Below, piece after piece: positions 6,313 to 35,792 of a stretch of 64,000 nucleotides of DNA. The DNA is from Chloracidobacterium validum (lineage in GTDB: Bacteria; Acidobacteriota; Blastocatellia; Chloracidobacteriales; Chloracidobacteriaceae), in assembly GCF_018304825.1 (NCBI RefSeq), contig NZ_CP072649.1, positions 248,001-312,000 on the forward strand, written 5' to 3'. Both the position numbers and the translations under genes were made by a program. Each line of letters starts with the position of its first letter. The first letter of the stretch is position 1. The notes under the pieces were generated by a model. That model was not told the DNA's origin. It did not search any database and saw only the letters and a program-made list of their open reading frames with translations.

Positions 6313-6381
6313 TGATGTTTGAGCCTATGTTGCTCTTGGTTTTCGACATTTTGCACACCTGTAAGGAGACCCCCTGTTGCC

Positions 6382-7800: not shown

Positions 7801-7836
7801 CTGCTGAAGCTGACCGGGCGCGCAACCGCTTTGTGT

Positions 7837-7874
7837 CCCGTCCGCATCCACCAGACGCGGACGGGCTTTTGTTT
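7837..7874 (+). terminator. Rho-independent terminator closing the pigment cluster
   Basis: A perfect 9-bp stem, CCCGTCCGC at 7837-7845 with GCGGACGGG at 7857-7865, an 11-nt loop, then CTTTTGTTT. It begins 36 bp after the second radical SAM gene and ends the + strand cluster before the convergent kdsC gene. Confidence 0.85.
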
Positions 7875-7949
7875 GCTTACCGCGCGACAATCCCTGTCGT
7901 TCAGCGTGGGAAGGCGGTTCCAATCCGGCGCGGAAACCAGGCGAGGCAA

Positions 7950-8474: not shown

Positions 8475-8917
8475 GAGTGGTTCTCCACATCTGGCTCATT
8501 TGAACTTGCTTGGACAAAGATAGATGTAAACAAGCGGGACACGGAAGCGGATGGCGGCAGGAGAGCTGGTTGACTTGGTACATGCCTCACCTGCCGACTG
8601 CTTGGCAAGCTGCTGAGCCGTGGCGGCGCGCCCCGGCCGTGGCGCTGGCGAGACGAACTGGCCGGGAGAAAGTTCCGAAGCTGGCCTGCCAGCGGCGAGA
8701 AATCGTGGGTTGCCGTCTAAACAACAGGCTTGGAAGCCCCGGCCGGGAGTGGTATAGTCGTTGAGTATGTCAAACTAGGGCCACCCAAGTTTAGTCAAGC
8801 GTTAGTTGCTGTAAGGTTTAGTCGTGATTGCTTTCCTCGCGTGGATAGTTCACGTTGCGTTCTTGTCCACCCTAGAAAACAACGCTTCCTAAAAGGTTCC
8901 TTAGGGGTTTAGTGGGA
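8475..8917. other. 443-bp intergenic region upstream of siaC
   Basis: No convincing gene. It carries the divergent 5' ends of kdsC and the siaC operon and a good sigma-70-like promoter at 8730-8758. TTTAGTC/TTTAGT elements recur at about 8791, 8817 and 8908, of unknown meaning. No riboswitch motif was recognised. Confidence 0.6.
8730..8758 (+). promoter_or_regulatory. Predicted sigma-70-type promoter for the siaC operon
   Basis: TTGGAA (8730-8735), a 17-nt spacer, then TATAGT (8753-8758) preceded by TGG, giving an extended -10. Transcription would start near 8765, leaving a leader of about 150 nt before siaC. Prediction from sequence only. Confidence 0.5.
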
Positions 8918-19944: not shown

Positions 19945-22900
19945 TCAGCCCGCTGAAGCCTCCTCGTAGCCCAGGTTGGGGCGCAGCCACCGTTCGGCTT
20001 CGGCAACCGACCATCCCTTGCGGGCAGCGTAATCTTCAATTTGGTCGCGTCCTAGCCAGCCGACGGCAAAGTAGTGGGCCTCAGGATGGGCGAAGTACAG
20101 CCCACTCACCGAACTGGCCGGCTGCATGGCGCAGCTTTCCGTCAACCGAACGCCGGCGTTTTCCTCCGCGCCCAACAGCGCGAACAGTGTCCGTTTTTCC
20201 GTGTGGTCCGGCGAGGCCGGGTATCCCGGCGCGGGGCGAATGCCGCGGTAGCGTTCCCGAATGAGGTCGTCACGGCTGAGGTTTTCGGTCCGGCCGTAGC
20301 CCCACAGGTCGCGGACGCGCTTATGGGCCAGCTCGGCAAAGGCTTCCGCCAGTCGGTCGGCCAGGGCCTTGGCCAGGATTGAACCGTAGTCGTCATGGTC
20401 GGCGTCAAACGCCGCGCAAAGTTCATCCAGACCCAGCCCGGCCGTCACGGCAAATCCTCCAACGTAGTCGGCAACGCCGGTGTCCTTCGGGGCGACGAAA
20501 TCCGCCAGCGCGACGTTCGGCTTGCCGTCCGTGCGTTCGACTTGCTGGCGTAGCGTATGAAAGAGCGCCAGTGTCTCGGTTCGGCTTTCATCGGCGTAGA
20601 GTTCGATGTCGTCGCCGACGGCGTTGGCCGGAAAGAGACCGATGACGCCCCGTGGGTGGAGTAGCTTGTCCGCGATGATCCGTTCCAGCAGGCGCTGGGC
20701 ATCGTCGAAGAGTTCGCGCGCGCGTTCGCCCATCACCGGGTCATCGAAGATTTTGGGATAGCGCCCGCGCAGTTCCCAGGTGTGGAAAAACGGCGACCAG
20801 TCAATGTACGGCACGAGCGCATCCAGCGTCACGTCATCGAGCGTCAGGATGCCGAGCTGTTCCGGGACGGCCACGGTTTCCGCGTCAAAACGCAGTCGGG
20901 GGCCCCGCGCCCGGGCTTCGGCCAGGGACAGCAGGCGCTTGCGGTCGAGTTTTGCCTGATGCTCGGCGCGGAGCGTGGCTTGTTCGTCGGCGTTGTGGGC
21001 GGCGAAGTCGGCACGCTGGTCGCGGCTGGTCAACGCGCCGACGACGCCCACCGCCCGCGAGGCATCGAGCACATGAACGGTCGTCCCGCAGTAAGCCGGC
21101 GCAATCTTGACAGCCGTATGCAGCTTTGAAGTCGTCGCGCCGCCGATGAGGAGCGGCAGATCAAATCCCTGCTCGGTCATCGTCTTGGCCACATGAACCA
21201 TCTCGTCCAGTGAGGGCGTAATCAGGCCGCTCAGCCCGATGACATCCACCTGGTGTTCGCGCGCCTTGGCCAAAATGACATCGCAGGGCTGCATCACGCC
21301 CAGATCAATCACGTCGTAGTTGTTGCACCCCAGAACGACGCCAACGATGTTTTTGCCGATGTCATGAACGTCGCCCTTGACCGTGGCGAGCAGGACTTTC
21401 TTGCGCGCGCCGTGGCCATTGGTGGCTGTTTTTTTCTCGGCTTCGAGGTAGGGCAGCAGGACGGCGACGGCCTTTTTCATCACCCGCGCCGACTTGACGA
21501 CCTGGGGCAGGAACATCTTGCCCGCGCCGAACAGGTCGCCGACGACGTTCATGCCATCCATGAGCGGCCCTTCGATGACGGCGAGCGGCGCGCCGTACTT
21601 TTGGCGCGCTTCTTCGACGTCGGCTTCGATGTAGTCGGCGTTGCCCTTGATGAGCGCCTGCTTGAGCCGTTCTTCGACGCTGGCGTGCCGCCACGCTTCA
21701 TCCTTGACGGTCGTTTTGCCCGCGCTTTTGACCGAATCGGCAAAGGCCAGGAGCCGTTCGGTGGCGTCCGGGCGACGGTTGAGAACGACATCCTCGACGA
21801 GTTCGAGCAGGTCGGGCGGAATCTCGTCATAGACGGCCAGTTGCCCGGCATTGACGATCCCCATGTCCATCCCGGCCCGGATGGCGTGGTAGAGAAAGAC
21901 CGAATGCATGGCTTCGCGGACGACGTTGTTGCCCCGAAAGGCGAACGACAAGTTGCTCACCCCGCCCGAAACCTTACATCCCGGCAGGGTTTGCTTGATG
22001 ACCCGCGTTGCCTCGATGAAGTCCACCGCGTAGTTGGCGTGCTCTTCGATGCCGGTGGCAATGGCGAGAATGTTCGGGTCGAAGATGATGTCTTCCGGCG
22101 GGAAACCAACCTGTTCGGTAAGAATGCGGTAAGCGCGGGTACAGATTTCGATCTTGCGCGCCGCGGTGTCGGCTTGCCCAACCTCATCGAACGCCATGAC
22201 GACCACGGCCGCCCCATAACGGCGGATGAGGCGGGCCTGTTCGATGAACACCGCTTCGCCTTCCTTGAGGCTGATCGAGTTGACCACACACTTGCCCTGC
22301 ACACACTTCAGCCCGGCCTCGATGACGTGAAACTTCGAGCTGTCAATCATGATCGGGACGCGCGCGATGTCGGGGTCTGAAACGACCAGATTCAAAAAGC
22401 GCGTCATGGCGCTGACGGCATCGAGCATGCCTTCGTCCATGTTGACGTCAATCACCTGCGCCCCGTTGGACACTTGTTGACGGGCAACCGCCAGCGCGTC
22501 TTCGTAGCGTTCGGCGCGAATCAACTCGGCAAACTTGGCCGAGCCGGTGACGTTGGTGCGCTCGCCAATGTTGACGAAGTTGGTTTCGGGCCGAATGACC
22601 AGGGCTTCCAATCCGCTCAGGCGGGTGTAGCGTTCTGGCGTCGGCCGGACGCGCGGCGCACATCCGGCAACGGCGGCGGCAATGGCGGCAATGTGCTTGG
22701 GGGTCGTCCCACAGCAGCCACCGACAATGTTGAGCCAGCCGTGGCGGGCAAAGTCACGCAGCAGTTCACCCATGATGTCGGGCGTTTGGTCAAAGCCGCC
22801 AAAGACGTTGGGCAGTCCGGCGTTTGGGTAGCAAACCAGGTAAAACGGGGATTTTTCCGCCAGTTCTTCGACATGGGGGCGCATTTCCGCCGCGCCGAAA

Positions 22901-23646
22901 CCACAGTTCATGCCGAGCGCCAGCAACGGCGCATGCTGCACCGAGATGAGGAAGGCTTCGACCGTCTGCCCGGAAAGCGTGCGTCCACTGGCGTCGGCGA
23001 CGGTGACGGAAGCGATGACCGGCACCCGCTTCCCGCGTCGCTCAAACACCTCCTCGATGGCAAAGAGCGCCGCCTTGAGGTTGAGCGTGTCGAAGGTGGT
23101 TTCTGGCAACAGTAGGTCAGCCCCACCGTCAAGCAGACCTTCAGCCTGTTCGGCATAGGCGCTCACGAGTTCATCGAAGGTGGTGCCCCGCGCGCCGGGG
23201 TCGTTGACATCCGGCGAGATGGAAGCCGTTTTGTTGGTCGGCCCAAGCGCCCCGGCGACAAAGCGGGGGCGTGAGGGGTCGTTTGCCAGAAAGGCGTCCA
23301 CGGCGCGGCGCGCGCACTGGGCCGCGGCGAAGTTGAGTTCGTAGGCCAGATGCTCCAGGCCATAATCCGCCTGGGAAATCCGCTGGGCATTGAAACTGTT
23401 GGTTTCGATGATGTCCGCGCCGGCCGCGAGGTAAGCCAGGTGAATGGCCTCGATGATGTCGGGCCGGGTCAGGCACAACAGGTCGTTGTTGCCTTTGAGG
23501 TCATGGCTGTGATCCGCAAATCGTTCGCCGCGATAGTCGGCTTCCTGGAGCTTGTAAGACTGGATCATCGTCCCCATGGCGCCGTCGAGGACGAGAATGC
23601 GTTCACGTAGGATTTGTTCGAGCAAATGAGCAGGTGAATGGATCAT
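19945..23646 (-). CDS. metH: Cobalamin-dependent methionine synthase
   Basis: Transfers a methyl group from 5-methyltetrahydrofolate to homocysteine via methylcobalamin. At 1233 residues all four modules are present: homocysteine domain ([13 protein letters not shown] at the start; zinc Cys pair in [14 protein letters not shown]), folate domain ([16 protein letters not shown]), cobalamin cap and domain ([27 protein letters not shown] with the axial His), and the SAM reactivation domain ([19 protein letters not shown]). No cobalamin or SAM riboswitch was found upstream. It supplies methionine, hence SAM, for the many radical SAM enzymes in this window. Two large hairpins separate it from hemN. 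Confidence 0.96.
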
Positions 23647-23717
23647 GAAGTGAAATTACGCCGGCAGCGCATAAAGCAACCTAGGGCTGAGGGAAGGCGT
23701 AGTCTAACCGCTTGTGC

Positions 23718-23758
23718 CGGGGACGACTAGTCTGATTGTCCGACTTGGATCGTCCCCG
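23718..23758. other. Inverted repeat in the hemN-metH gap
   Basis: CGGGGACGA (23718-23726) pairs with TCGTCCCCG (23750-23758), and inside the loop AGTC/GACT can extend the structure. It lies 72-112 bp before metH on the - strand, where a leader structure or operator could sit. No T-run follows on either strand. Confidence 0.55.
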
Positions 23759-23817
23759 ACCAGCCCGCGGGCCGGGCCGTGAAGGTCATGGTTGGCGTGA
23801 TGGATGTGCAACCCACG

Positions 23818-23851
23818 CGGCCGGCCCAGAGCCAGGACGCTGGGCCGGCCG
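23818..23851 (-). terminator. Strong hairpin just after hemN; possible terminator
   Basis: A perfect 12-bp stem, CGGCCGGCCCAG (23818-23829) with CTGGGCCGGCCG (23840-23851), loop of 10 nt, starting 9 bp past the hemN stop. No U-tract follows, so it may be an RNA-stabilising hairpin or a non-canonical terminator rather than a standard intrinsic one. Confidence 0.5.
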
Positions 23852-23860
23852 TGGCGCCGG

Positions 23861-25213
23861 TCAAAGTGTTTTGGAGAAGACCGGTTGCGATGTGCCAGGT
23901 TTCAGGTAGGCATCCAGTGTCATGCAGATATTGCGGACAAACGGTCGTCCCACCGCCGTCACCACAAGCCGGTCGGCTGTGTAGTCAACCAATCCGTCTG
24001 CTTCCATGTCTTGGAAGTGCGCCGCATGGGCGTCGAACGCTTCCCCAAGGGTTGCCAGTGGAAGCTCCATGTTGCACATCAAATGACTGATGGCGGCGCG
24101 GCGACGCTGGTCATCCGGGGTGAGCCGGTGGCCGCGCGCGATGGGCAATTCGCCCTGATCGAGCGTCGTCTGATAGCGCCCCAGTTTGGCGTCATTCTGC
24201 GCGTAAAACCCGGTCAACTCACTGATGCCGCTCATCCCAAACGCAATCAGGTTGGATGCCGGCCGCAGCGTGTAGCCCATGAAGTTTCGGTGCAGTCGGC
24301 GTTCCTGGACTGCGACGGCCAGTTCATCGCCTTGTCGGGCAAAGTGATCCATGCCCACCCAGACGTAGTCGTGGCTGGTCAATCGCTGCCGTGCTTCGTC
24401 AAACAGCGCAAATCGGGTCAGGACATCCGGTAGGTCTTCCGTTCGGATGTGGCGTTGCTTGGGGCGCAGCTTGGGGACATGCGCGTAGTTGAACAGGGCT
24501 ACCCGGTCTGGCTGCATCGCCAGGACGGCCTGCACCGTCTGCCGGAAGGTTTCACTGGTCTGGAGTGGCAAGCCATAGACCAAGTCCAGGTTGATGCTTT
24601 CAAAGCCCACGTCCCGGCAGGCCGCGTAGATGCTTTTCGTGAGCGCCTCCGGTTGATGCCGTCCGATCGCTTGTTGAACCTGCGGGTCAACGTCTTGTAC
24701 GCCCAGACTAATGCGGCGGAAACCAAGCGACCGGATGTGTTGGAGTTGAGCCAACGAGGCAATCCGCGGATCAATCTCGATGGACATCTCACCGCGCCAG
24801 TCCAGATCAAATGCATCGCCGAGCAACTGCACGAGCCGTTCCATCTGACGCGCGGTTAGCGTGTTCGGCGTTCCGCCGCCCCAGTGCATCTGGACGACCC
24901 GCCGTCCACGACCGAGGAGGTCCACCACCAGATTGATTTCCCGCGCTACCCGGTCAAGGTAAGCATCCACGACTTCGGTCTTACTGGTGACGGCGTTGTT
25001 GCATCCGCAGTAATGGCAGGCCATCGCGCAAAAAGGCAAGTGCACGTACAAGCACAGGTCTTGCGCATCGGGCGTTTCCGACAACTCACGAAGCGCCGTT
25101 TGGTAGTCCGTCGCCCCAAACCGGTCACTCCAGACCGGAACCGTGGGGTAACTCGTATAGCGTGGCCCGGGGCGGCTATATTTTTGCAAGAGGCTTTCGA
25201 TCTTCGTCGTCAT
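23861..25213 (-). CDS. hemN: Oxygen-independent coproporphyrinogen III dehydrogenase
   Basis: Radical SAM enzyme converting coproporphyrinogen III to protoporphyrinogen IX without oxygen. 450 residues. The HemN-specific four-Cys motif is Cys62-x3-Cys66-x2-Cys69-x-Cys71 in HLPFCAMACHYCGCN, and the N-terminal RYTSYPTVP and MHWGGGTPNTL segments are present. These mark true HemN rather than HemW-type homologues. AGAAGGGAG upstream supports the ATG at 25213 rather than an in-frame start at 25240. The gene begins inside the 3' end of bchE (38-bp overlap), so the two are surely cotranscribed: both are anaerobic-type tetrapyrrole enzymes. Confidence 0.93.
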   Translation of the reverse strand: MTTKIESLLQKYSRPGPRYTSYPTVPVWSDRFGATDYQTALRELSETPDAQDLCLYVHLPFCAMACHYCGCNNAVTSKTEVVDAYLDRVAREINLVVDLLGRGRRVVQMHWGGGTPNTLTARQMERLVQLLGDAFDLDWRGEMSIEIDPRIASLAQLQHIRSLGFRRISLGVQDVDPQVQQAIGRHQPEALTKSIYAACRDVGFESINLDLVYGLPLQTSETFRQTVQAVLAMQPDRVALFNYAHVPKLRPKQRHIRTEDLPDVLTRFALFDEARQRLTSHDYVWVGMDHFARQGDELAVAVQERRLHRNFMGYTLRPASNLIAFGMSGISELTGFYAQNDAKLGRYQTTLDQGELPIARGHRLTPDDQRRRAAISHLMCNMELPLATLGEAFDAHAAHFQDMEADGLVDYTADRLVVTAVGRPFVRNICMTLDAYLKPGTSQPVFSKTL

Positions 25214-26834
25214 CGGGATGCTCCCTTCTGCCAATCGCAACCAGAGGCTCCGGCGTCAGGTGCGCCTCGCGCGGGCCGCCACACGCCGAGATCGAACCCA
25301 GGTAGTTCACATCTGCGCGTGTGGGTGAGGCCTCATCATCGAGCGCTGCCAGTTGCTCACGGCTGTACACTCTGGATTCATCGAAGCCAAGGTCAACCTC
25401 AACCCCAAGCCCTTTCCGTTTGACGCGCCCAATGTCATAGAACCGTTTGGTCGCCGTCATTTTGACGAAGGCTTTGAGACAGCCCAGCATGTACTTGCGC
25501 TTGAACGAATCCCGAATGAAGGGGTATTCCAGAAAAGCTTTCCGACTGTAGAACTTGCCGTACATCTTGAGCACGCCTTTGAGGACGTCTTCGCGTTCCA
25601 TGTCATCGGGTTGCATGATGGGGGTCACGAAGTTGTAGCGCGAGTAATCGCGGACTTCGACGCGGTCCTTGAGTTCCTCGAAGAGTTCGGAGAAGGGCCA
25701 GGGCGTGTACATGTTCCAGTTGGCCATGTCTGGGTTCCAGTCCAGGGCCAAGCGGTAGGTTTCCTGAAGCGTTTCGGGCGTTTCGTTCTCTAGCCCCATG
25801 ATGAACTGCGCTTCGGCTACCATGCCGTTGTCTTTGAGGAGTTGGATGGCGCGTTTGTTTTCCTGAATGGTCGTTTCTTTGCGGAAGCGGTTGAGGTTCA
25901 TCTGGGTGGCGGCTTCTGTGCCGAGCGATACGTGGACCAGCCCGGCCTTGCGATAGAGCGGCAGCAGGTGGGCGTCGCGCAGGATGTCGGTCACGCGCGT
26001 GTTGATGCCCCAGTGGACATCGAGTTTGCGCGCAATCAGGGCTTCACACAGCGCGACGAACTTCTTCTGGTTGATGGTGGGTTCTTCGTCGGCCAGGATG
26101 AAAAAGCCCACTTGGTGGTCTGTGACAAGCGTTTCGATTTCATCCACAAATTTTTCTGGCGAGCGGGTCCGATACTTCCGCCAGAACTTCCACTGCGAGC
26201 AGAACCGACAGGTAAACGGGCAGCCCCGGGCAAAGTTCGGCACGGCAACCCGAACGTTGAGTGGAAGGTAGATGTACTGGCTCCAGTCCAGTACGCTCCA
26301 GTCGGGGGTTAGGGAATCCAGGTCGGCAATGGGCGGATGGGCCGGGGTGGCAATGACATTGCCCTCATCGCTCCGAAAGGCGAGTCCACGAATGTCGTGG
26401 CGCTGCCGGCGGTCATCACCGGCTTCGATGGCGCGCAGGAGGTTGACGATAATTTCTTCGCCTTCGCCGCGCACGATGTAGTCAATCCACGGGGCTTCGG
26501 CGAGCACTTGACCATACATGAAGCTCGGATGAATGCCACCTAAGATCGTGATGGTAGAAGGGTTGATGTCCTTGACCAGCTTGAGGGTGGACTGCGCCTT
26601 GTAAATCATCGGCGTAATCGCCGTCGCCATCACCACGTCGGGCTGATTGGCGCGGATGAGATGTTCCAAGGCTTCGTCGGTGAGATCGAGCGCCATGGCA
26701 TCCACGAAGCGGTAGTTTGTGTAGCCGGCGTGCCGCAGCGCTCCGCCAATGTAGGGGGCCCAGCTTGGCGGCCAGTTCCCGGCAATTTCTGCGCCGCCGC
26801 AGTGGTAATTCGGTTGAATCATCAGAATCTTCAT
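25176..26834 (-). CDS. bchE: Anaerobic Mg-protoporphyrin IX monomethyl ester cyclase BchE
   Basis: B12-dependent radical SAM enzyme that forms the isocyclic ring E of (bacterio)chlorophylls using water-derived oxygen. 552 residues. The N-terminus MKILMIQPNYHCGGAEIAGN is the characteristic BchE start, followed by the cobalamin-type domain (ITILGGIHPSFMYGQVL) and the radical SAM site Cys205-x3-Cys209-x2-Cys212 in FARGCPFTCRFCSQWKFW. The EEPTINQKKF and NFVTPIMQPD segments are also BchE-like. The frame is open upstream to 27278 but the ATG at 26834 has TGAGGA upstream and gives the family N-terminus. It lies apart from the bchL cluster. The aerobic cyclase AcsF is not seen in this window. Confidence 0.95.
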   Translation of the reverse strand: MKILMIQPNYHCGGAEIAGNWPPSWAPYIGGALRHAGYTNYRFVDAMALDLTDEALEHLIRANQPDVVMATAITPMIYKAQSTLKLVKDINPSTITILGGIHPSFMYGQVLAEAPWIDYIVRGEGEEIIVNLLRAIEAGDDRRQRHDIRGLAFRSDEGNVIATPAHPPIADLDSLTPDWSVLDWSQYIYLPLNVRVAVPNFARGCPFTCRFCSQWKFWRKYRTRSPEKFVDEIETLVTDHQVGFFILADEEPTINQKKFVALCEALIARKLDVHWGINTRVTDILRDAHLLPLYRKAGLVHVSLGTEAATQMNLNRFRKETTIQENKRAIQLLKDNGMVAEAQFIMGLENETPETLQETYRLALDWNPDMANWNMYTPWPFSELFEELKDRVEVRDYSRYNFVTPIMQPDDMEREDVLKGVLKMYGKFYSRKAFLEYPFIRDSFKRKYMLGCLKAFVKMTATKRFYDIGRVKRKGLGVEVDLGFDESRVYSREQLAALDDEASPTRADVNYLGSISACGGPREAHLTPEPLVAIGRREHPDDDEDRKPLAKI

Positions 26835-27181
26835 AAAAATTGCGTCCTCAGCGCCGTGGTGTACCAGCCAGGGCCTGGTGTGGGGACGTTTGGAAAAAGC
26901 AAGGCCGGCGCCCTCTTGCTTCCAAGGTACAGCGCCGTGCCCCTCAAGTGTGAGATTTTTCACGGTCTTTTTAGGTGCTGGGAACCCAAGCGAGACGCAC
27001 CCTAGTGTCCCGGCGGCACTTCCGATGACCGGCAACCACCGCTTGGCAGTCGCACCCCCGCCATGCAGGATTGGAAAATCAGCCACATCGTGATTAATCG
27101 AACCGGTCGCGCGCCGGCGGCCCTGGGGTTGCCAAGCATCCGGCTGAATGGCGCGCTCAAGTGAAGGGAAAGGCAGCGGTT
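26835..27181. other. 347-bp divergent intergenic region, bchE and the ATPase module
   Basis: No gene supported. It must hold the promoter of bchE (-) and probably that of the three-gene module (+). A dyad occurs at 26890-26925. TTGCC/GGCAA-type words are scattered, but I cannot assign -35/-10 elements with confidence. Confidence 0.5.
26890..26925. promoter_or_regulatory. Imperfect inverted repeat upstream of bchE
   Basis: TTGGAAAAAGCAAG (26890-26903) opposes CTTGCTTCCAA (26915-26925): 11 paired positions with three extra A in one arm and an 11-nt centre. It lies 56-91 bp upstream of the bchE start, where an operator for a redox or light regulator could lie. Function is inference. Confidence 0.35.
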
Positions 27182-28942
27182 GTGTCTGAGGGAACCTACA
27201 AAAGCCGTTTGCGGGATTGTTTTGGAAAGGACTGGTGCGACCAGGTTCTGACCGGTGACTACCGTCCGGCCATACCACTGTCCCTTCAGGACGTGGACAT
27301 CACGGCCGTGCTGCCGACGGTTTTTTACATGATTCGCTCCGTCCAACGGCGCGGCAAGGGACGCTTTACCAGCGTTTTTGGCGCTGACCCGACGGTGGGG
27401 CGGCTGGCTGCCGATTTGGCGCGGACGGCACATTTCAAAGGCTTTGACGCACCGCCAGCACAGGACGTGCTGAGTGACCTGCTCCTGGGCTTTTGCCTTG
27501 AAAATCGCAACCGCTCTGAACGCAAGACCGAACCTGTCCGGCGGGCGCTGCCCACGCACTACTTTGCCGCCTGGCTTGACCTGCCGGAGAAAAGCGTTGA
27601 CCTGCGCTACATACCGGAAACGCTGGTGGCCATGCTGGCCGGACAATCTGGCCCCTGGGTGGAACCTTCCGCCCCCGATGACCCAACCCCCTTTCCGGTT
27701 GGGCGACGATTTCAAGAAAATCTGCTCCTCAAGCCCTTTCTGCGGGGCGTCCTCCCGGCCGATCTGCCGCGTAACCTGCCGGATCGGTTTGATGAGGTCA
27801 CTTCGGTGACACTGCCCGAATGGCTCATGATCCGGCTGGCAGAGCGGCTGGAGCAGCCCCCACAATCACTGGGCAGCCGGGAGGGTGGCGCGCGCATTCC
27901 CAACCAGCAACCGTTGGCGTGTGTCCACAACCCACTGCGGGATGACCTGGCCGTTTTCATCGCCGCCTATGGCGAGACCATGCCGCGTGGCGTCCTGATT
28001 GGCATGCTCGAAAGCGCGTTGGCAGTCGGTTTGACGACCATGCTGACCAGCACGGCCGAGGCGCTTGGCTGCTGGGCGCAGGACGGGCGTTTGCCACAGA
28101 AGCAGCCACGGCATTGTCCGCTGTTGCTCGATGCTTCCAACGGGCGCGACCGTGAGCTGGCGCGCGCGGCAGAAAAAATCTTTGCCGAGCAAAGCAAGCG
28201 TTTGGAGTGCGTCCCGGTCATCCTGATGGCGCTGCGATTGCTCGACTACGAAGCTGAACGCCGATTGCCGGCCCATGACCCCCTACCGGCGGCGACGCCC
28301 CACGGCGACGCGCGCCTCACCTGCCTGGGCGACCTGCTCTATGCGCGCCATCCGGCTTCCCAAACCGTGCTCGCGGCCCTGGTCAGCAAAGCCGAAACGG
28401 TAGCTGCCATCTGGCCGGAGCCCTCCGCCAAGTTGGCGACGGCCCTGCGAGACCGGCGTCCGGCCGCCGAAATCGTGCTGGCGTTGGCGCAGGTGCTGAC
28501 CGAACTCCGCGGGCGCAAGCAGGCCGGCAAATGGTTTGAGCTGTTGGATAGCTGCGCGTTGTGCGACGACCCACGCGGATTGGTCATCAAGTCGGGGACA
28601 GCGCGCAGCGGCCGCACCCGACGTGACATCCGGCGCGGCAGTCTTCCCGATGCCACACTGGATTACCTGGCCCACCTGTGGTTGGCACACCAGGCTCGGT
28701 CGGCAGCGGCAACGCTAAAAGGATTTTGGATGTGGTTGCCGAGCCGCTATGGTTTTCATGTGACCGATCCGCCGCTGCCCGGTGTGACGCTGGCGGATGC
28801 CTTGCTGAGAAACAATCAACAGTACTTGGAAAACCGCCTGCGCGACTTGGGGCTGCTGGTCAGCGTCAGTGACGCCGAGGCGATGAAGCGCTTGCAGCCG
28901 CGTTTTCCGATCAAGCCAATGCCTCATGAGACCGTTTCATGA
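27182..28942 (+). CDS. Unrecognised 586-residue protein, first gene of the ATPase/nuclease module
   Basis: I do not recognise a family. The protein starts MSEGTYKSRLRDCFGKDWCDQ if the GTG at 27182, preceded by AAGGGAAAGG, is used; an earlier GTG at 27161 lacks a ribosome binding site. It is soluble, rich in Arg, Leu and Ala, without P-loop, signal peptide or membrane helix. A CALCDDP motif around residue 455 and a basic stretch SGTARSGRTRRDIRRG follow each other near the C-terminus, suggesting possible nucleic-acid contact. It lies 38 bp upstream of the large ATPase gene and is surely cotranscribed. By position it could play the role of DptG in Dnd-type restriction modules, but it is longer and I see no sequence evidence for that. 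Confidence 0.6.
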   Translation: MSEGTYKSRLRDCFGKDWCDQVLTGDYRPAIPLSLQDVDITAVLPTVFYMIRSVQRRGKGRFTSVFGADPTVGRLAADLARTAHFKGFDAPPAQDVLSDLLLGFCLENRNRSERKTEPVRRALPTHYFAAWLDLPEKSVDLRYIPETLVAMLAGQSGPWVEPSAPDDPTPFPVGRRFQENLLLKPFLRGVLPADLPRNLPDRFDEVTSVTLPEWLMIRLAERLEQPPQSLGSREGGARIPNQQPLACVHNPLRDDLAVFIAAYGETMPRGVLIGMLESALAVGLTTMLTSTAEALGCWAQDGRLPQKQPRHCPLLLDASNGRDRELARAAEKIFAEQSKRLECVPVILMALRLLDYEAERRLPAHDPLPAATPHGDARLTCLGDLLYARHPASQTVLAALVSKAETVAAIWPEPSAKLATALRDRRPAAEIVLALAQVLTELRGRKQAGKWFELLDSCALCDDPRGLVIKSGTARSGRTRRDIRRGSLPDATLDYLAHLWLAHQARSAAATLKGFWMWLPSRYGFHVTDPPLPGVTLADALLRNNQQYLENRLRDLGLLVSVSDAEAMKRLQPRFPIKPMPHETVS

Positions 28943-28980
28943 GACCAAAATACGCAACCAAAGCATAACGAGATGGTGAC

Positions 28981-31900
28981 GTGCGGAATTTTTTGACCGA
29001 TACGGCCGATTGGACACAAGGCGATCACGTGCACTTTCTTGCCGCGGCGTTTGGCAAGCTGCTCGGCAAAGCTAGACCAGGGACGGTGGTCTATGTCCGC
29101 GATGCTGCGCCAGACATCATCCGCCGGCTCCCGCAGGATACGTACTTCACCGACACGCTCAGGGCGAAGGGCTGGCAGGTGTACCGGGTGGCCGCGCGGG
29201 CCGATGAAGCCCTCAATACCATCACGTCCGACCAGGCCGTGGCGCAGCGCGAAGCCAAGGGGACGGCCACCCTGCTGCTGGTCGAGCGGAACGAAGCCGG
29301 TCCTGGCATGGATGGCATCTACAGTGCCGGGCGGGAAATCCAGGAAGACAAACTCCTCGATGAAGCCTGCCACCAGGCGCTACAGTCGGTTGCCTCGCCC
29401 CCGCAACGCGCCTTCCTGCGCGCGCTGCTCAAGGATACCCAAACCCGTCTGTCCCATCGCTCACGCTGGCTGGCCTTCGATTTTTTGGCCCGTGTGGTGA
29501 AACGGCCGGAAGATTGGGGAGCACACCTGTGGCTCCTCGGGCGCTGGCCCGTGGTGAGTCAAGACCTCCCATCCCAAAGCACGAAACAAGCCGCGCTCCA
29601 CCGCGCCGAACAAGCGGCACGGTTGGTCACCGATCTCTTTGGCGCGGCGGCGCTCCGCCGGCCCCTGGCCGAGCGTTTGGCGCGGGCGCGCGTCCAGACG
29701 AAAACCGAAGCCGAACGGCAAGCGCTACAGGCGTTTCTGGAAGCCCACCAGGCCGAGCCGACGGATGTTGTGCTCAAGCGTCTGCGCGACCGGCCCGAAT
29801 TCTGGCTGGGCAGGATCGAGACGGCCTCGGTCGCGGAACACCTCACCGACCTGACGCTCTCGCCCTGGCGCGCGGCGCGTGGCTCATCGCCGTTCAAGTG
29901 GTCGGGTCTGAACCAGGACCCGGAAACGCAAGCGCTGGTTTGGCCGATCCACCCCAATGCCGAAAACACTGCCGCCCTTCAGGTCAAGTGGAAAACCACC
30001 CCGGCGGAACTTCCTCCCGGCAGCGTGACCTACCACCTCGCCTTGGTTGATGCCAACGGCGCCGCCCTGTTTGAAACCGAGCTGACCCATGCCGGTAAAA
30101 ACGAAGAGAAGTTTACGCTCACGGCCGAAGACCTCCCCAATGGTGGCGAGGGACTGGACTGCACGGCGCGCCTGGTGCTCACGGCGACGCAGGAGCACAC
30201 GACAATCACGCGCGAGACCGAGTGGTTTACCATTCGCGCCGGCGAGGTCGGCGCCGATGCGGCCACATCGCAGTCCCGCCGGTGGGTCCGCGCCTTCAGC
30301 GAAGGCTTGATCGAACTCGACAGCCCGGCACAGGTTGCCGCCCGGTGGGAACACCCGGCCCTTGCGGAGTCTGACGCCGTCATCACGCTGGAGATGGACA
30401 AGTCGCGCAGCTATGGCCTGCGCTATCCGGCGCTCTTTGCCGCCGTTGAGCGCGCCTGGGCCGATTTGGCCTCCCCGGTAGTCCGGTGGACGCTCACCGT
30501 CCGCGAGTCAGGTTTCTGGCGGGGAACCGTCTCCCCGGTCAACCTCGTGCCTGGGATGGAAACCCCACTTCACCTCTGGCAGCGCGTGCACGAGGCCACG
30601 AGCAAACTCGTTCAACACGTCCAAAAGGTGAAATTGAACGGTCTGACCTATGTTGAGCCGAGTCCGCAGGCAGAGGTCATCGGCGCGTACCTTGACGCCT
30701 GGTGTGACTTGCTGGCCGTGGGCGAGCCGGAACTGGCGCTGGTGAGCACCGTTGCCGTCAGTGATGGCCGCCGGGTCCGTGGCCTCATCGTCCTGCCTAC
30801 GCATCCCTTGCGCCTGGCCTGGCATGCCGCCTACGACGCCCTGCTCCTCCACGCCCGTTTCCAGGAACAGGTGGCGCCCAAGACGCTGGTCCGCGAACTC
30901 CGCTGCCTCGACGGCATGTGGTTTCCGGCCTGGTTGCCGGGCGTGGAAGCCTCTCCGGCCTTCGTCTTTGCCGATACGCTTGGTTTTCATGCGGCGGCGC
31001 TGGTGCCCGAAGATGACCCGGAGCCACGGGTGACGACCACGCTACTGGCGCGGGCTTTGGAAAACTGTGAGAAGCCGGATGACCGACACCTGCCGAGGAC
31101 GCTGGCTGACCGCGCCGTCACCTTGCTGGGCGATGAACTTCGGGCCTACGCAGCCGGCCATCCCTACCAAAAACTGCTCCACATTCACGCACTTCGCGCC
31201 GGCGACGGACAAACAGTGACCCGGGCCCTGGGGCAAGCGCGGCGGTCAATCATGGCGGTGACGACTCCGGCGACCGATGACGACGACGATACGGAGACAC
31301 CTGACAACCAACCCCCGGCCTTCGTCCTGCACTTGCATGCCTCACCAACGGACAGCCCACTGGCCGGACAGTTTTTGCGCCAGCTCACCCTCCGCCGCCG
31401 CCTGCGTGGGGCGTCCACCGTGCCGAGCGAAGACCGGTGGGTCAGCGAGACGACGCGCTACCACCACGGCGTCACGCAGCCCAACCTGCAATGGATTCAG
31501 TCGGCGTCTCCGCTCCCGGAGACGCCGGGGCATGTGGGCATCCTATTTGACCTGTTGACGTCCCAAGTACGGACCGGCGCACCGCCCCCGAACCTGCCAC
31601 CGGCCGGAGTTTGCGGACTGCTATCCAGGTTGTGCCGGGTGTACTATCCCGGCCCGGTGCCCCGGTGGGAGGCGTTCCTGCCGGATTTCAGCCGCGCCAC
31701 GGCGCATCCGGCCGACGCGCCGCACACCGTCCGGTTGTGTGCCTTGCAGTCCGGTCTTGGTCGCCTCGTGGCGCGTTACTTGCACCTGGAAAACGGTTCG
31801 GCATGCCTGACGACCACGCTTTCCGAAACGCGCCAAGCTGAACTACGGCACATGCACGAATGCTGCGACTGGGTCGTGACGCTCGACCATTTTGCCGGCG

Positions 31901-33966
31901 TCGAGTACTTCGACCATCCCCACGCCCACAGCGATGTCTATGCAGCGCATGTCATTGATTGTGTGCCGGACCGCGATGACGTTGCCGACTTGCGGCTGGT
32001 GGCTTCAACGGCGCTCATTGCCGAAGTCGAGGCGCTCCTGGCCGAACTTGCCAAGCGCGCAGGGTGCGCGTTGGACGCCAGGACGGCGCCGTTCCTTTTG
32101 GCGCGGCTGAAGGAAATCAGCCGCCGCCTGCCCATTCGCCTGGCCGGGGCCGAACCCCCGGCGGAAGAGCTGCTGGCCCTGGCGGCGGCCGGCGCGTACT
32201 GCCGAGCGGCCGAACCGGATGATCCCTGTTGGGTTGCGCTGCGCAATGGCGTGCTCATCCCCGTGGATGACATCCCCGACCTGCTTCCTGAGCCACGGCT
32301 GCGCCGGAGCGCGGCCGTGCCGGAGCGCCGGGCCGACTTTCTCTACGTCACGGGGCATCCGTCCGGGCAGCTTGTCGTTCGCTTCATTGAAGTCAAATAC
32401 CGCAGGGCATTTGAAGCGTTTTCGCCAGAGCAGGTAAATCAGCTCCTCGACGAGATTCGGGCGCAGGTCGAAGCCACGCGCAAAGGCTTCCTCAAGCAGT
32501 ACCTTGACCCAGCGCTCCCGCCCACGCTGCGTCTCCTGCGGCTGGCGCGCCTGGCCCTGGTCGTGCAGTCCTATGCCGACAAAGCCCGGCGTCACCACCT
32601 GGAACCGGCCGGCTACGACGCGCTCTACGCGGCCTGCCATGGGTTGTTGGAAGGGCGTGGTGACGTGGTGGTTGCCGCCGAGGAGGAGGACCGCGGCTGG
32701 GTCTGCTCGCCGAGTTTTGCGGGACCCACCCCGCTGGAAGTGTCGCGGGCCGGTTGGCCGGTGAGAACCTTTCGGTTCGGCTTGCCGGCCCTGGATGTTC
32801 CCGACCAGGAAGATAACCACCCAGAAGACAGCCATCAGGCAGACCACCCAGAAGACAACTCAAAAAACGGCGCAGTGGGGGTGGGCGGCCCACCCGCCGA
32901 GCCACTTCCGCCTGGTGACGTTGAGCCGGCTATCGTGCTCGGCCGCAGCCGGGCCGGCCACCCGGTGTCTTGGAAGCTCACCATCAAGGGTAATCCGCAC
33001 CTGTTGGTGGTCGGTCTGCCCGGTATGGGGAAAACGACGTGCCTGCTCAATATCTGCGCGCAGATGCACCGGCAGCGAGTTTGTCCGCTGGTCTTTTCCT
33101 ATCACCAGGATTTCGATGAAAAGCTCCAGTCCAGAATTCCCGCCGTGGATTTGCTCGAAGTCGGACGCCTGAGCTTCAACCCGCTGGCCGTGACGACGGT
33201 GGAGCATCCACGGGCTTACGTGGATGTGGCCGGGGCCACGCGCGACATTTTCGCGGCCATGTATCCCGACCTCGGCGACCTGCAACTCGGCGCGCTCCGC
33301 CGCGCCATCGTGGAAAGCTTTGAGGAACGGGGGTGGAGCACGGAGCGAGTCGGCGAGACGCCACCGTTCGGGCGCTTCGTTGAACTACTCCGCCAAAAAG
33401 CCAGGCAGGATGCGAGCTTGCGCCGGCTTTTGACGCGCCTGGATGAACTGGAAGACTATGGCTTTTTCAAGCCACCGCCGACCGAGCCGGCGCGCGACCT
33501 GTGGCAACGGACGGCTCCGGTCGTGGTGTGCTTGCACCGCGAGCAAAGCGAGGTCGTGCAGTCGGCCTTTGCCATGCTGGTGCTCTACCAGCTTTACAAG
33601 GATATGTTCCGGCGCGGCGTGCAGTCGCGGATCACGCATGCCATCATGTTTGATGAAGCGCACCGCGCCCGCCGGCTGAAGCTCATTCCAACCGTGGCGA
33701 AAGAGTGTCGGAAATACGGCATTTCGCTGGTGTTGGCCTCGCAGGAAGCGCGGGATTTCGATCCTAGTGTGTTTTCCGCCGTCGGCAGTCAGCTCGTGCT
33801 GCGCGTCAACGAGGCAGATGCCAAGGCGCTGGTGCGCAATATGACGGCAACCGGACAAGCGCGCTCGGTCGTGGACCAGATCAAGTCCATGCCCAAATTC
33901 CAGGCGCTCTATTTCAGCGAACAGGCCGCACCACAGTATTGTCACTTGCTCGCCGATGCCGATTGA
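28981..33966 (+). CDS. 1661-residue DptH-like protein: PD-(D/E)XK-like domain plus HerA-type ATPase
   Basis: The C-terminal 350 residues form a HerA/VirB4-type ATPase: an approach segment ILGRSRAGHPVSWKLTIKG, Walker A GLPGMGKT at 1345-1352, Walker B with Asp1558-Glu1559 in IMFDEAHRA, and a sensor-like LVLASQEARDF. Before it, Asp1119 in RRADFLYV with Glu1137 and Lys1139 in RFIEVKYR fits a PD-(D/E)XK nuclease core. A D/H/P-rich linker joins the two. The first 1100 residues are not recognised except RGLIVLPTHPLRLAWHAAYD near 600-620, like segments in DNA phosphorothioation restriction protein DptH, which also has a HerA-type C-terminus. Start is GTG at 28981. A defence role in DNA cleavage or translocation is inferred. 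No dndBCDE genes are nearby. Confidence 0.68.
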   Translation: MRNFLTDTADWTQGDHVHFLAAAFGKLLGKARPGTVVYVRDAAPDIIRRLPQDTYFTDTLRAKGWQVYRVAARADEALNTITSDQAVAQREAKGTATLLLVERNEAGPGMDGIYSAGREIQEDKLLDEACHQALQSVASPPQRAFLRALLKDTQTRLSHRSRWLAFDFLARVVKRPEDWGAHLWLLGRWPVVSQDLPSQSTKQAALHRAEQAARLVTDLFGAAALRRPLAERLARARVQTKTEAERQALQAFLEAHQAEPTDVVLKRLRDRPEFWLGRIETASVAEHLTDLTLSPWRAARGSSPFKWSGLNQDPETQALVWPIHPNAENTAALQVKWKTTPAELPPGSVTYHLALVDANGAALFETELTHAGKNEEKFTLTAEDLPNGGEGLDCTARLVLTATQEHTTITRETEWFTIRAGEVGADAATSQSRRWVRAFSEGLIELDSPAQVAARWEHPALAESDAVITLEMDKSRSYGLRYPALFAAVERAWADLASPVVRWTLTVRESGFWRGTVSPVNLVPGMETPLHLWQRVHEATSKLVQHVQKVKLNGLTYVEPSPQAEVIGAYLDAWCDLLAVGEPELALVSTVAVSDGRRVRGLIVLPTHPLRLAWHAAYDALLLHARFQEQVAPKTLVRELRCLDGMWFPAWLPGVEASPAFVFADTLGFHAAALVPEDDPEPRVTTTLLARALENCEKPDDRHLPRTLADRAVTLLGDELRAYAAGHPYQKLLHIHALRAGDGQTVTRALGQARRSIMAVTTPATDDDDDTETPDNQPPAFVLHLHASPTDSPLAGQFLRQLTLRRRLRGASTVPSEDRWVSETTRYHHGVTQPNLQWIQSASPLPETPGHVGILFDLLTSQVRTGAPPPNLPPAGVCGLLSRLCRVYYPGPVPRWEAFLPDFSRATAHPADAPHTVRLCALQSGLGRLVARYLHLENGSACLTTTLSETRQAELRHMHECCDWVVTLDHFAGVEYFDHPHAHSDVYAAHVIDCVPDRDDVADLRLVASTALIAEVEALLAELAKRAGCALDARTAPFLLARLKEISRRLPIRLAGAEPPAEELLALAAAGAYCRAAEPDDPCWVALRNGVLIPVDDIPDLLPEPRLRRSAAVPERRADFLYVTGHPSGQLVVRFIEVKYRRAFEAFSPEQVNQLLDEIRAQVEATRKGFLKQYLDPALPPTLRLLRLARLALVVQSYADKARRHHLEPAGYDALYAACHGLLEGRGDVVVAAEEEDRGWVCSPSFAGPTPLEVSRAGWPVRTFRFGLPALDVPDQEDNHPEDSHQADHPEDNSKNGAVGVGGPPAEPLPPGDVEPAIVLGRSRAGHPVSWKLTIKGNPHLLVVGLPGMGKTTCLLNICAQMHRQRVCPLVFSYHQDFDEKLQSRIPAVDLLEVGRLSFNPLAVTTVEHPRAYVDVAGATRDIFAAMYPDLGDLQLGALRRAIVESFEERGWSTERVGETPPFGRFVELLRQKARQDASLRRLLTRLDELEDYGFFKPPPTEPARDLWQRTAPVVVCLHREQSEVVQSAFAMLVLYQLYKDMFRRGVQSRITHAIMFDEAHRARRLKLIPTVAKECRKYGISLVLASQEARDFDPSVFSAVGSQLVLRVNEADAKALVRNMTATGQARSVVDQIKSMPKFQALYFSEQAAPQYCHLLADAD
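32806..32870 (+). repeat. Internal short repeats in the linker of the large ATPase
   Basis: The words ACCACCCAGAAGACA recur at about 32815 and 32842, encoding a D/H/P/E-rich stretch (HPEDSHQADHPEDN). This looks like replication slippage that lengthens a flexible linker between the nuclease-like and ATPase domains. Confidence 0.6.
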
Positions 33967-34055
33967 CACGCCGGCGCGTCCGGGACATCCACATGGGGGC
34001 AGGTTGGGTCTATGGCCGAGCGTTGGTTTCAGATAGCCAAAGTGGTGGGGAAGTC

Positions 34056-35792
34056 ATGACCGTAGAGCGTCGCCCACGCCGCCTGGAATGGCTGCGTGAC
34101 GTGCAAAAGGCCTATCCCGGTTCGCGCCGTGGGAACATCGAGACCCACGGACTCGATAGCGACTTTGCCCGCCAGACCTACGTGGCGACGGGGCTGGAAT
34201 CCCAGCTCCTGGATGCCGTCACCGGTCGGCGTTTCCGGCTCATCATCCTGTGCGGCAATGCTGGCGATGGTAAAACCGCGCTGCTGCAAAACCTGGCCGG
34301 CCGGCTTGGCCTTGGGAACACTCGGCGGCAGGGCGGCCCGGTCGAGTATCGGCTGGCCGATGGGCTGCGGGTGCGGTTCAACCTCGATGGGTCGGCGGCC
34401 TGGGAGGAAGGGTCTTCTGATCTCTTGCTGGATCAGTTCTTGGCGCCTTTTGTCAACGGGCCACCGTCCGAAGACATCGTTCACTTGCTGGCCATCAACG
34501 ATGGACGGCTGTTGAGTTGGCTGGGCCGGGGACGGGAAGCCACACCCCTCGCCCGGTCCCTACTCCGCCGGCTGGACGGCAATGGAACGGATGACGCCCC
34601 ACACATTGGGTTGTTCCATCTCAACCGCCGTTCGCTCGTCGGCGAGTTTGACGCCACCGGACAGCTCACCACCGGGTTTCTGGATGCCTTGCTCGATCAG
34701 CTCTACGGAAGCGCCGACGCGGCCACGATGTGGCAGAAGTGCGGCACCTGTGTGGCCCAGCCGCATTGTCCCGTGTTTCGGGCCGCAACGTACTTTGGGC
34801 CGGATAACCTGCCGGGGCGGGTAGCGGCGCCCAAGCAGCAACATGCCCGCCACCAACTGTACCGTGCCCTACAGGCTGTTCATCAGCTTGGCAAGTTGCA
34901 TCTGACGATCCGCGACCTCCGGGGTACGCTGGTTTACATCCTCTTCGGAACCGCCTCCTGTGACGCTCACTGCAAGGGAAAGCCGTATCCGCCGTACTGG
35001 GATCGGGTCTTTGACGCGCAAACGCCGGATCGGCAGGGCGAACTCCTCGCGGCCCTGACGGTCTTTGATCCGGCCCGGGAGGCGGATGCCCGACTCGATC
35101 GCTATTTGCTGGCCAGCCAGCGCCAGCGGCGTCCAAATCTTGCCGGAGCGCGGCGGCAGGCCTACTTTGAGTTGCTGCCGGAAACGGTGGCGCAGATTGG
35201 TGGCAAAACCGCCTACCTGGGGCTGGCGCGCGGACGGCATCTCGACTTGCTACAGCAGGTTCCCTTGCTGTCCGACGCGGAGCGGAGGTCCGTGGTGCAG
35301 CGGCTGGGGCGGGGTCTATCCAAAGCGGAACTGTTACCACCGCTTGCCTACGCGAAAACAGACAGCCTTCCCTTTCGGATTCATCCACGCACGCCGACCG
35401 ATACGGTGTTCTGGATCGAAACGCGGCTAGATGCGTTTGCCGTGGAGGCAGCTTGGCTGGACGTGGGGGGACTGGGGCCTGACCGGCGTGGCCTGCCCCA
35501 CGAAGCTTTTCTCGCGCATCGCAATGCGCGGGGACAGACCGCCCGGCTGCGGCTGACGGCTGATCTCTTTCACGTCCTGCTCGAGCTGGAGCGCGGGTAT
35601 CAGTTGAGCGCGGCGACGCTGGATGAAACCTTTGCGCACCTGGCGCTCTTCATCGAGCAGATCATCCAGAATCACGACGGCGACTGGTATGCTTGGCATC
35701 CAACCCAGGAAGATCGGGTGTACCGACTCAGGTTGACCACTCGTGACTTGGGCCACGGATTTCACCAAGTCTTGACCGTTGTCCCGGACTGA
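34056..35792 (+). CDS. DptF-like P-loop ATPase, third gene of the module
   Basis: 578 residues. The Walker A motif LCGNAGDGKTALL (GNAGDGKT at 67-74) matches the type seen in DptF, an ATPase of phosphorothioation-dependent restriction. A Cys cluster CGTCVAQPHCPVF at about 230-242 and a later SCDAHCKGK suggest a zinc site. A likely Walker B region is HLLAINDGRLLSWL. The ATG at 34056 is preceded by GGGGAAG; the frame is open further upstream but without support. It starts 89 bp after the large ATPase, and no gene follows on the + strand for 10 kb, so the module ends here. AAA+/STAND NTPases of other defence systems remain an alternative. Confidence 0.65.
   Translation: MTVERRPRRLEWLRDVQKAYPGSRRGNIETHGLDSDFARQTYVATGLESQLLDAVTGRRFRLIILCGNAGDGKTALLQNLAGRLGLGNTRRQGGPVEYRLADGLRVRFNLDGSAAWEEGSSDLLLDQFLAPFVNGPPSEDIVHLLAINDGRLLSWLGRGREATPLARSLLRRLDGNGTDDAPHIGLFHLNRRSLVGEFDATGQLTTGFLDALLDQLYGSADAATMWQKCGTCVAQPHCPVFRAATYFGPDNLPGRVAAPKQQHARHQLYRALQAVHQLGKLHLTIRDLRGTLVYILFGTASCDAHCKGKPYPPYWDRVFDAQTPDRQGELLAALTVFDPAREADARLDRYLLASQRQRRPNLAGARRQAYFELLPETVAQIGGKTAYLGLARGRHLDLLQQVPLLSDAERRSVVQRLGRGLSKAELLPPLAYAKTDSLPFRIHPRTPTDTVFWIETRLDAFAVEAAWLDVGGLGPDRRGLPHEAFLAHRNARGQTARLRLTADLFHVLLELERGYQLSAATLDETFAHLALFIEQIIQNHDGDWYAWHPTQEDRVYRLRLTTRDLGHGFHQVLTVVPD

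What the first reader, a model, noticed from the sequence alone, without database searches (positions are those of the whole stretch)
27182..35792. Three-gene ATPase/nuclease module that looks like an orphan Dpt-type defence system
An unrecognised 586-residue protein, a 1661-residue protein with PD-(D/E)XK-like and HerA-type ATPase parts, and a GNAGDGKT P-loop protein form a co-oriented operon with gaps of 38 and 89 bp. The last two resemble DptH and DptF of phosphorothioation-linked restriction, but no dndBCDE modification genes or DptG are in the 64 kb. A stand-alone nuclease-translocase system with different self/non-self recognition is therefore possible. The set sits between unrelated housekeeping genes like an inserted block.
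Basis: partly seen in the sequence, partly recalled or inferred. Interest (0 to 1): 0.88.

Follow-up and report, generated by a model that had tools for sequence, protein, structure and literature searches.

The report
Stand-alone, rearranged DndFGH-type defence module
These three genes form a complete set of the DNA-cutting machine that some bacteria pair with sulfur-marked DNA, here kept by a genus of phototrophic bacteria in which no gene for the known sulfur-marking chemistry was found, so it probably tells friend from foe in another way.

Summary
The host belongs to the Chloracidobacterium genus. All 7 held genomes of it keep the module wholly or in part, and 0 of 7 have a PAPS-reductase-superfamily gene (DndC/SspD type; 14 of 14 controls do), so known phosphorothioate chemistry is not the self-mark. 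A survey gave 54 loci in about 18 phyla, mostly ordered F-G-H with NERD-kinase F; the G-H-F order with a bare F was seen only in Chloracidobacterium. Stand-alone DndFGH and NERD-kinase F were published in 2024, so the concept is not new; this permuted, reduced variant is. Between two close genomes H residues 1-900 are the most divergent of 15 segments, while G and the rest of H are about 98% identical. Best reading: a restriction machine that is unmarked or methylation-gated.

The parts
27182..28942 (+). G subunit (DndG/DptG/SspG homologue, 586 aa)
   Evidence: AF2 model pLDDT 90.9; VIA-align rank 1 = 7exx 'structure of DndG', Z 18.2, rmsd 6.2, 404 aligned of 440, next Z 3.5; of 48 family members 38 hit a PADLOC SspG model (E up to 0.1, best 3e-10) and 48 hit NCBIfam MAD7 (E up to 0.01). 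P0001 itself is below the MAD7 cut-off (99.8 vs 410 bits) and has no direct SspG hit.
28981..33966 (+). H subunit (DndH/DptH-type, 1661 aa)
   Evidence: PADLOC DndH E 1.5e-20 over 1316-1650 only; PDB 7es4 DptH C-terminus E 8e-11; domain folds from a model of residues 100-1299.
29833..30252 (+). H residues ~285-424: beta-sandwich/Ig-like domain
   Evidence: VIA-align matches to macroglobulin-, complement- and GH2-type beta-sandwiches, Z about 8.
31015..32019 (+). H residues ~679-1013: SAM-methyltransferase fold without the amino-MTase catalytic motif
   Evidence: Best Z 11.1 (1jqd, a small-molecule MTase); adenine-DNA MTase M.BseCI Z 8.3 at rank 29; [DNS]PP[YFW] in 0 of 34 H rows.
32335..32397 (+). 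H PD-(D/E)XK-like REase core: D1119 ... E1137-x-K1139
   Evidence: D in 31, E in 30 and K in 30 of 34 aligned H proteins.
32926..33930 (+). H residues 1316-1650: HerA/FtsK translocase ATPase
   Evidence: PADLOC DndH, mad8 and HerA hits; Walker A at 1345, DEAH at 1558-1561, ASQ at 1586-1588.
34056..35792 (+). F subunit (DndF/SspF-type P-loop protein, 578 aa, no N-terminal effector domains)
   Evidence: PADLOC SspF E 4.1e-13, DndF E 1e-5; its profile matches the C-terminal part of NERD-kinase-F proteins.
34254..34286 (+). F Walker A GNAGDGKTALL
   Evidence: Position; GN[AP]GDGKT in 46 of 46 F proteins over 900 aa.
34488..34511 (+). F 'ND' motif (LAINDGRL)
   Evidence: Position; an ND motif is described for DndF (PMC10853773 section 20); a loose pattern finds it in 33 of 46 F proteins over 900 aa.

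Best explanation
A complete DndFGH/SspFGH-superfamily restriction module (order G-H-F) that works as a stand-alone anti-invader DNA nuclease-translocase, without phosphorothioation. Inferred mechanism: G (DNA-binding, by its match to DndG) and the N-terminal part of H (beta-sandwich and dead-methyltransferase parts) pick out invading DNA; F binds a nucleotide and gates the complex; the HerA/FtsK motor of H moves the DNA and the H REase nicks or cuts it. Shown here: family identity of the three proteins, intact catalytic motifs, purifying selection, no detectable PT genes in the genus, higher divergence of the N-terminal part of H. Inferred: anti-phage or anti-plasmid function, gating by F, and how self DNA is spared (most likely no covalent self-mark, or a methyl mark made by a separate host methylase).
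For: G = DndG fold and SspG/MAD7 family. H = REase + HerA best matching DptH + MTase fold + beta-sandwich, as listed for DndH. F = SspF/DndF. All three genes linked in 46 of 56 survey loci, two of three in the other 10. No PT genes: DndC none in own genome, PF01507 0 of 7 genus genomes with 14 of 14 controls positive and 4 of 4 DndC proteins detected by it, DndD over cut-off 0 of 7. In 50 genomes with relatives DndC is over cut-off in 8. Defence context: type I-G CRISPR genes next to the triplet in G005 (PADLOC) and, at 91-94% nucleotide identity, in G001; SIR2 and type ISP genes near it on one Rhizobium plasmid, two DNA MTases on another. G001 vs G005: H codons 1-900 86.6% nucleotide identity, rest of H 98.4%, G 98.8%. 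Window vs G005: the three proteins 56-63% identical, six compared neighbours 77-94%.
Against: No activity data. Retention in 7 of 7 genomes is unusual for a defence gene and could fit a housekeeping role. Tested DndFGH and SspFGH damage hosts that lack PT (passages of PMC8092258), so a PT-free FGH must behave differently. H outside the motor has no direct match to DndH models, and Foldseek alone found no significant fold match for G or H. The REase residues are kept in 30-31 of 34, not all. The window copy's neighbours are housekeeping genes. The 900-residue boundary in the G001/G005 comparison was chosen after seeing the profile, and the flanks also vary, 91-98% by segment with dips to 80%. 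8 of 50 genomes with relatives do have DndC.
Confidence: 0.7

Rival explanations
1. Methylation-gated variant: the FGH machine spares self DNA because a host N6/N4 DNA methyltransferase encoded elsewhere marks the chromosome, as presumably in MADS, where G- and HerA-like proteins accompany methylation.
For: Two orthologous N6/N4 MTases occur in 7 of 7 genus genomes (88-93% and 75-82% identical to the window genome's), and in G004 one lies about 5 kb from the triplet remnant; G is homologous to MAD7 in 48 of 48 members, the HerA part of H matches mad8, and the F proteins of G012, L062 and L076 match mad6; a Rhizobium plasmid has two DNA MTases directly downstream.
Against: In the complete genomes G000, G001 and G005 both MTases are on C1 and the triplet on C2; an amino-MTase motif was seen near only 8 of 56 survey loci, not all confirmed as MTases; orphan MTases are common (recalled).
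Confidence: 0.3
2. Domesticated housekeeping role (chromosome or plasmid segregation, DNA repair) rather than defence.
For: Present at least in part in 7 of 7 genus genomes, one left-flank gene shared by three complete genomes, dN/dS 0.16-0.30.
Against: Nuclease residues kept; the module is much more divergent than compared neighbours; G004 has lost most of H; relatives sit on plasmids beside SIR2, R-M and MTase genes.
Confidence: 0.12
3. Canonical PT-dependent Dnd or Ssp restriction arm whose modification genes lie elsewhere in the genome.
For: The subunits are homologous to those of PT systems.
Against: PF01507 0 of 7 genomes with 14 of 14 controls; DndC model none in own genome; DndD over cut-off 0 of 7.
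Confidence: 0.03
4. A partial or degenerate MADS system.
For: MAD7 match over nearly the full length of G, E 2e-28.
Against: 99.8 bits against a cut-off of 410; 0 of 396 Acidobacteriota genomes over that cut-off; H has a long REase-bearing N-terminal part, whereas the PADLOC mad8 model has 314 positions; window F matches SspF and no mad6.
Confidence: 0.04

Closest known systems
DndFGH (DptFGH)
   Same: Three subunits; G with DndG fold; H with beta-sandwich, dead MTase fold, REase and HerA/FtsK; F with Walker A and ND motif; stand-alone occurrence already described (PMC10853773).
   Different: Order G-H-F; F lacks any N-terminal domain; H N-terminal region too divergent for DndH models; no PT genes detected in the genome or genus.
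NERD-kinase DndF subset of DndFGH (PMC10853773, section 20)
   Same: Same lineage: of 7 relatives' F proteins scanned, NERD is over cut-off in 7 and Pkinase in 6, with G and H homologous to the window's.
   Different: Window F lacks the ~740 N-terminal residues; no NERD-kinase protein was found in the genus (matches are to the kinase stretch, one to residues 313-418, none to the NERD part).
SspFGH
   Same: SspG models hit 38 of 48 G homologues; SspF models hit window F.
   Different: SspFGH pairs with SspBCD PT modification (PMC8092258 passages); none here.
MADS (mad6, mad7, mad8)
   Same: MAD7 is a homologue of G; mad8 matches the HerA part of H; mad6 matches relatives' F.
   Different: Below the MAD7 cut-off; no methylase among the nine neighbours scanned.

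Membership tests
DndFGH/SspFGH superfamily | G subunit with the DndG fold | tested here: met
   7exx Z 18.2, 404 aligned; SspG hits in 38 of 48 homologues
DndFGH/SspFGH superfamily | H with C-terminal HerA/FtsK ATPase of DptH type | tested here: met
   DndH E 1.5e-20; 7es4 E 8e-11
DndFGH/SspFGH superfamily | H with REase after an inactive MTase fold and beta-sandwich | tested here: met
   MTase fold Z up to 11.1, beta-sandwich Z about 8 (DNA-MTase kinship itself not settled); D/E/K in 30-31 of 34 and no amino-MTase motif in 34 of 34
DndFGH/SspFGH superfamily | H N-terminal inactive SWI2/SNF2 P-loop domain, HTH and TRDs | tested here: inconclusive
   Residues 1-99 not modelled; listed rows barely test these parts
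DndFGH/SspFGH superfamily | F with P-loop, ND motif and lid | tested here: met
   SspF/DndF hits and both motifs; lid not modelled
NCBIfam DptF/DptG/DptH equivalogs | Score over the curated cut-off | tested here: not met
   DptF 12.5 bits against 50; no DptG or DptH model listed at E up to 1
PT-linked Dnd or Ssp restriction-modification | DndC/SspD-type PAPS-reductase-superfamily enzyme in the genome | tested here: not met
   PF01507 0 of 7 genomes, 14 of 14 controls; TIGR03183 none in own genome
PT-linked Dnd restriction-modification | DndD | tested here: not met
   TIGR03185 over cut-off 0 of 7; one weak 18-bit match in G003
MADS | MAD7 over curated cut-off | tested here: not met
   99.8 vs 410 bits
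MADS | Linked methylase and mad1-mad5 | tested here: inconclusive
   Nine neighbours of the window triplet show no methylase in Pfam; mad1-5 models were not searched
Any anti-phage system | Protection against phage or plasmid | not testable with these tools
   Needs experiment

The most novel reading that the evidence does not exclude
A PT-independent FGH restriction machine with its own self/non-self logic: recognition is set by an exchangeable N-terminal part of H (swapped between strains much as specificity subunits are), and self DNA is spared either by a host methyl mark or because the machine is switched on only by infection cues sensed by F; Chloracidobacterium carries a minimal form without the NERD-kinase effector, showing that part to be dispensable.
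Probability: 0.35. Interest if true: 0.7.

Novelty: new variant of a known kind. Interest (0 to 1): 0.47.

Why it matters
Tested FGH modules harm cells that lack phosphorothioate marks, so a genus that keeps FGH while no gene of the known PT chemistry can be found in it is a natural experiment on how such machines spare self. The bare G-H-F form (8.6 kb, no extra effector) is the simplest one seen here and a good object for testing whether FGH is a stand-alone defence, as proposed in 2024. The homology of G to both SspG and MAD7 also ties parts of the Dnd, Ssp and MADS restriction arms together.

Tried and rejected
Foldseek alone gave no significant PDB match for G (best E 0.71) or for H 100-1299 (best E 4.6e-3); only the VIA-align second look found DndG for G. 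Sequence profile of G against PDB: one irrelevant hit, E 2.2. Sequence profile of F against PDB: no relevant hit. Pfam on the three window proteins: nothing for G, weak generic P-loop hits for F, TrwB and other P-loop hits for H. A fourth operon member was considered because an FMO-like gene follows the triplet in G001, G003, G005 and G006, but it lies elsewhere in G000 and G004 and has homologues in all 7 genomes, so it was not taken as a part. A NERD-kinase gene elsewhere in the genus: 17-27 matches per genome, to the kinase stretch but for one. Viral contigs: 73 pattern matches, no relative confirmed. True MADS in Acidobacteriota: 0 of 396 over cut-off. Recurrent neighbours: of 367 flank ORFs two clusters reach 3 of 56 loci, none more. 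Promoter/terminator scan: no excess over shuffles. Literature on a MADS-DndG link: searches listed none in the open-licence library; the original MADS paper was not seen (recalled). Literature on Chloracidobacterium defence: nothing specific in the 12 listed. Organism: G003, same genus as the window's genome, has a contig of the same length (143849) as L040, titled Chloracidobacterium sp. CP2_5A; the window genome itself is unnamed.
Full report
WHAT IS THERE. The window holds three co-oriented genes at 27182-28942, 28981-33966 and 34056-35792, with 38 and 89 bp between them. Their starts agree with those of most aligned congeners. They are under purifying selection (dN/dS 0.16-0.30 in nine comparisons; dS is about 1 or more in six of the nine, so those ratios are rough).

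WHAT THE PROTEINS ARE. Protein 1 was called unrecognised. With 48 sequences in its alignment the AF2 model reaches pLDDT 90.9. Foldseek finds nothing significant, but VIA-align puts 7exx, the structure of DndG, first at Z 18.2 with 404 residues aligned of 440 and rmsd 6.2; the next row has Z 3.5. A PADLOC SspG model hits 38 of 48 members (E up to 0.1, best 3e-10) and NCBIfam MAD7 hits 48 of 48. It is the G subunit. Protein 2 matches DndH (E 1.5e-20) and mad8 (1.3e-18) over its HerA part, and its profile finds the DptH C-terminus 7es4 first in the PDB (E 8e-11). A model of residues 100-1299 (pLDDT 84.2) shows a beta-sandwich at about 285-424 and a methyltransferase fold at about 679-1013 (best rows are small-molecule MTases, Z up to 11.1; DNA adenine MTase M.BseCI Z 8.3). 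The amino-MTase motif is missing from 34 of 34 rows, and D1119, E1137 and K1139 are kept in 31, 30 and 30 of 34. This is the DndH layout of PMC10853773 section 21 (read), though the N-terminal SWI2/SNF2, HTH and TRD parts were not settled here. Protein 3 hits SspF (4.1e-13) and DndF (1e-5) and keeps the Walker A and ND motifs given for DndF in section 20. The curated NCBIfam Dpt models are not reached (DptF 12.5 bits against 50; DptG and DptH not listed).

WHERE ELSE IT OCCURS. A genome-contig scan with the G alignment gave 54 loci in about 18 phylum-level groups by record titles (mostly MAGs, so binning errors are possible); two Rhizobium plasmids add two. In Acidobacteriota it is rare: 4 of 396 genomes with the G profile, three of them of this genus. 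In the 56 loci the order is F-G-H in 44, G-H-F in 2, and two of the three genes in 10 (F and G 3, G and H 4, F and H 3), at least partly through contig ends or my simple ORF picking. F is about 1300-1350 aa in most; of 7 scanned, NERD is over cut-off in 7 and Pkinase in 6. The G-H-F order with a short F is seen only in the Chloracidobacterium group: window, G001, G003, G005, G006 and, with a broken G and H, G004; G002 is cut by its contig end. L040, L041 and L059 are the same contigs as those of G003, G002 and G004 by length, so they are not extra cases. In a G tree the five Chloracidobacterium rows form one clade (100/100) on a long stem of 0.8 changes per column, which suggests one rearrangement. 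Three loci carry two or three tandem G genes (L044, L067, L076).

NO PHOSPHOROTHIOATION. In the window's genome there is no DndC match. The PAPS-reductase superfamily PF01507, to which DndC and SspD belong (passages of PMC12839542), has 0 matches in 7 genus genomes (one of them only 85% complete), against 14 of 14 control genomes; PF01507 does detect DndC (4 of 4). DndD is over cut-off in 0 of 7. Among 50 genomes with relatives (50 of the 54 loci were given), DndC is over cut-off in 8 and matches at any level in 16; in the three cases where both lie on contig C1 the distance is at least about 220 kb (contig identity checked by length for two). No SGG.DS[ST] motif occurs in 956 kb of the 56 loci, while 4 of 4 DndC proteins carry SGGKDS. 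So this lineage of FGH is usually not linked to known PT genes, and in Chloracidobacterium none were found.

CONTEXT AND HISTORY. All 7 held genus genomes have a match to H: five over nearly the whole length, G002 cut by its contig end, and G004 with only the last ~245 residues beside a shortened G. In G005 type I-G CRISPR effector genes (PADLOC) stand between the shared left-flank gene and the triplet; G001 has the same genes at 91-94% nucleotide identity; they are absent there in the window. The immediate left neighbour of the window triplet (25176-27278) has a homologue in G001 but little of it in G005. The FMO gene and its followers that lie downstream in G001 and G005 sit inverted at C2 776-785 kb in the window's genome, so the right edge is a rearrangement junction. 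Window versus G005, the three proteins are 56-63% identical and six compared neighbours 77-94%. Between G001 and G005, H codons 1-900 are 86.6% identical, the rest of H 98.4%, G 98.8% and F 95.1%; H 1-900 is the lowest of 15 segments. The boundary was chosen after seeing the profile, the other segments span 91-99%, and a neighbouring gene has 250-base dips to 80%. Across 15 pairs of H the segment 430-560 is the least conserved or tied in 14 of those eight segments' comparisons. I read this as replacement or fast change of a recognition part: suggestive, not proof.

HOW IT PROBABLY WORKS. By family knowledge, G and H bind DNA, F gates by nucleotide, HerA moves DNA and the REase cuts. Passages of PMC8092258 say SspFGH targets non-PT DNA and harms PT-lacking hosts, as unrestrained DndFGH does. 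A PT-free FGH therefore needs another safeguard. Two N6/N4 MTases are conserved in 7 of 7 genomes and could supply one; PMC10853773 section 25 proposes instead recognition plus infection signals without an inbuilt mark. I favour the latter slightly, as the MTases are on the other replicon in the three complete genomes, though in G004 one lies about 5 kb from the triplet remnant.

NOVELTY. Stand-alone DndFGH and NERD-kinase F are in print (PMC10853773: abstract, sections 19-22 and 25 and find passages seen; PMC12839542 and PMC8092258: passages only). Not found in the searches made (listings and the passages named, open-licence PMC only): the G-H-F permuted bare form, its genus-wide presence where PT genes are absent, and the G-MAD7-SspG link. 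Supplements of PMC10853773, which may list Chloracidobacterium, could not be read. Hence a new variant of a known kind, of moderate interest.

Noticed in passing
L015:6899-14600 (G005) and the matching stretch of G001: Type I-G CRISPR effector genes (cas3g, cas8g, cas7g, cas5/6g) directly upstream of the triplet in two congeners, absent at that spot in the window.
   Followed up: partly
L024:8921-11145 (G004; also L059:9809-12033): G is shortened and H is reduced to its last ~245 residues, ORFs abutting: an internal deletion or an assembly artefact in a MAG; F looks intact.
   Followed up: partly
L044:8094-11800, L067:1385-4989, L076:6299-11803: Two or three tandem G genes between F and H (nearly alike in L044, diverged in L067 and L076), perhaps alternative recognition subunits.
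   Followed up: no
L063:12303-12737 and loci L071, L072: A 144-aa ORF and its relatives sit near the gap of about 1 kb between G and H in three loci; unidentified.
   Followed up: no
L025 (G012), F at 5529-8552: A more distant F-G-H set from the same order whose F hits mad6 at 2.5e-68 and whose G hits mad7 and SspG, a possible bridge between MADS and Ssp/Dnd arms.
   Followed up: partly
L016:6915-8396, L020:6168-7502, L021:11888-13228: FMO-like flavin monooxygenase gene follows F (3 and 12 bp gaps in G003 and G006) but is elsewhere in G000 and G004; in G001 it is split over two ORFs.
   Followed up: yes
L131 and L139 (window genome C1:1055391-1056041 and C1:653252-654130): Two N6/N4 DNA methyltransferases conserved in all 7 genus genomes.
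   Followed up: partly
L015:2-3961: 1320-aa ORF in the left flank of G005 made of many diverged tandem repeats (multiple blastn pieces at 74-81%).
   Followed up: no
window 19945-27000: Left neighbours of the triplet: B12-dependent methionine synthase and two radical-SAM proteins, one with a B12-binding domain.
   Followed up: no
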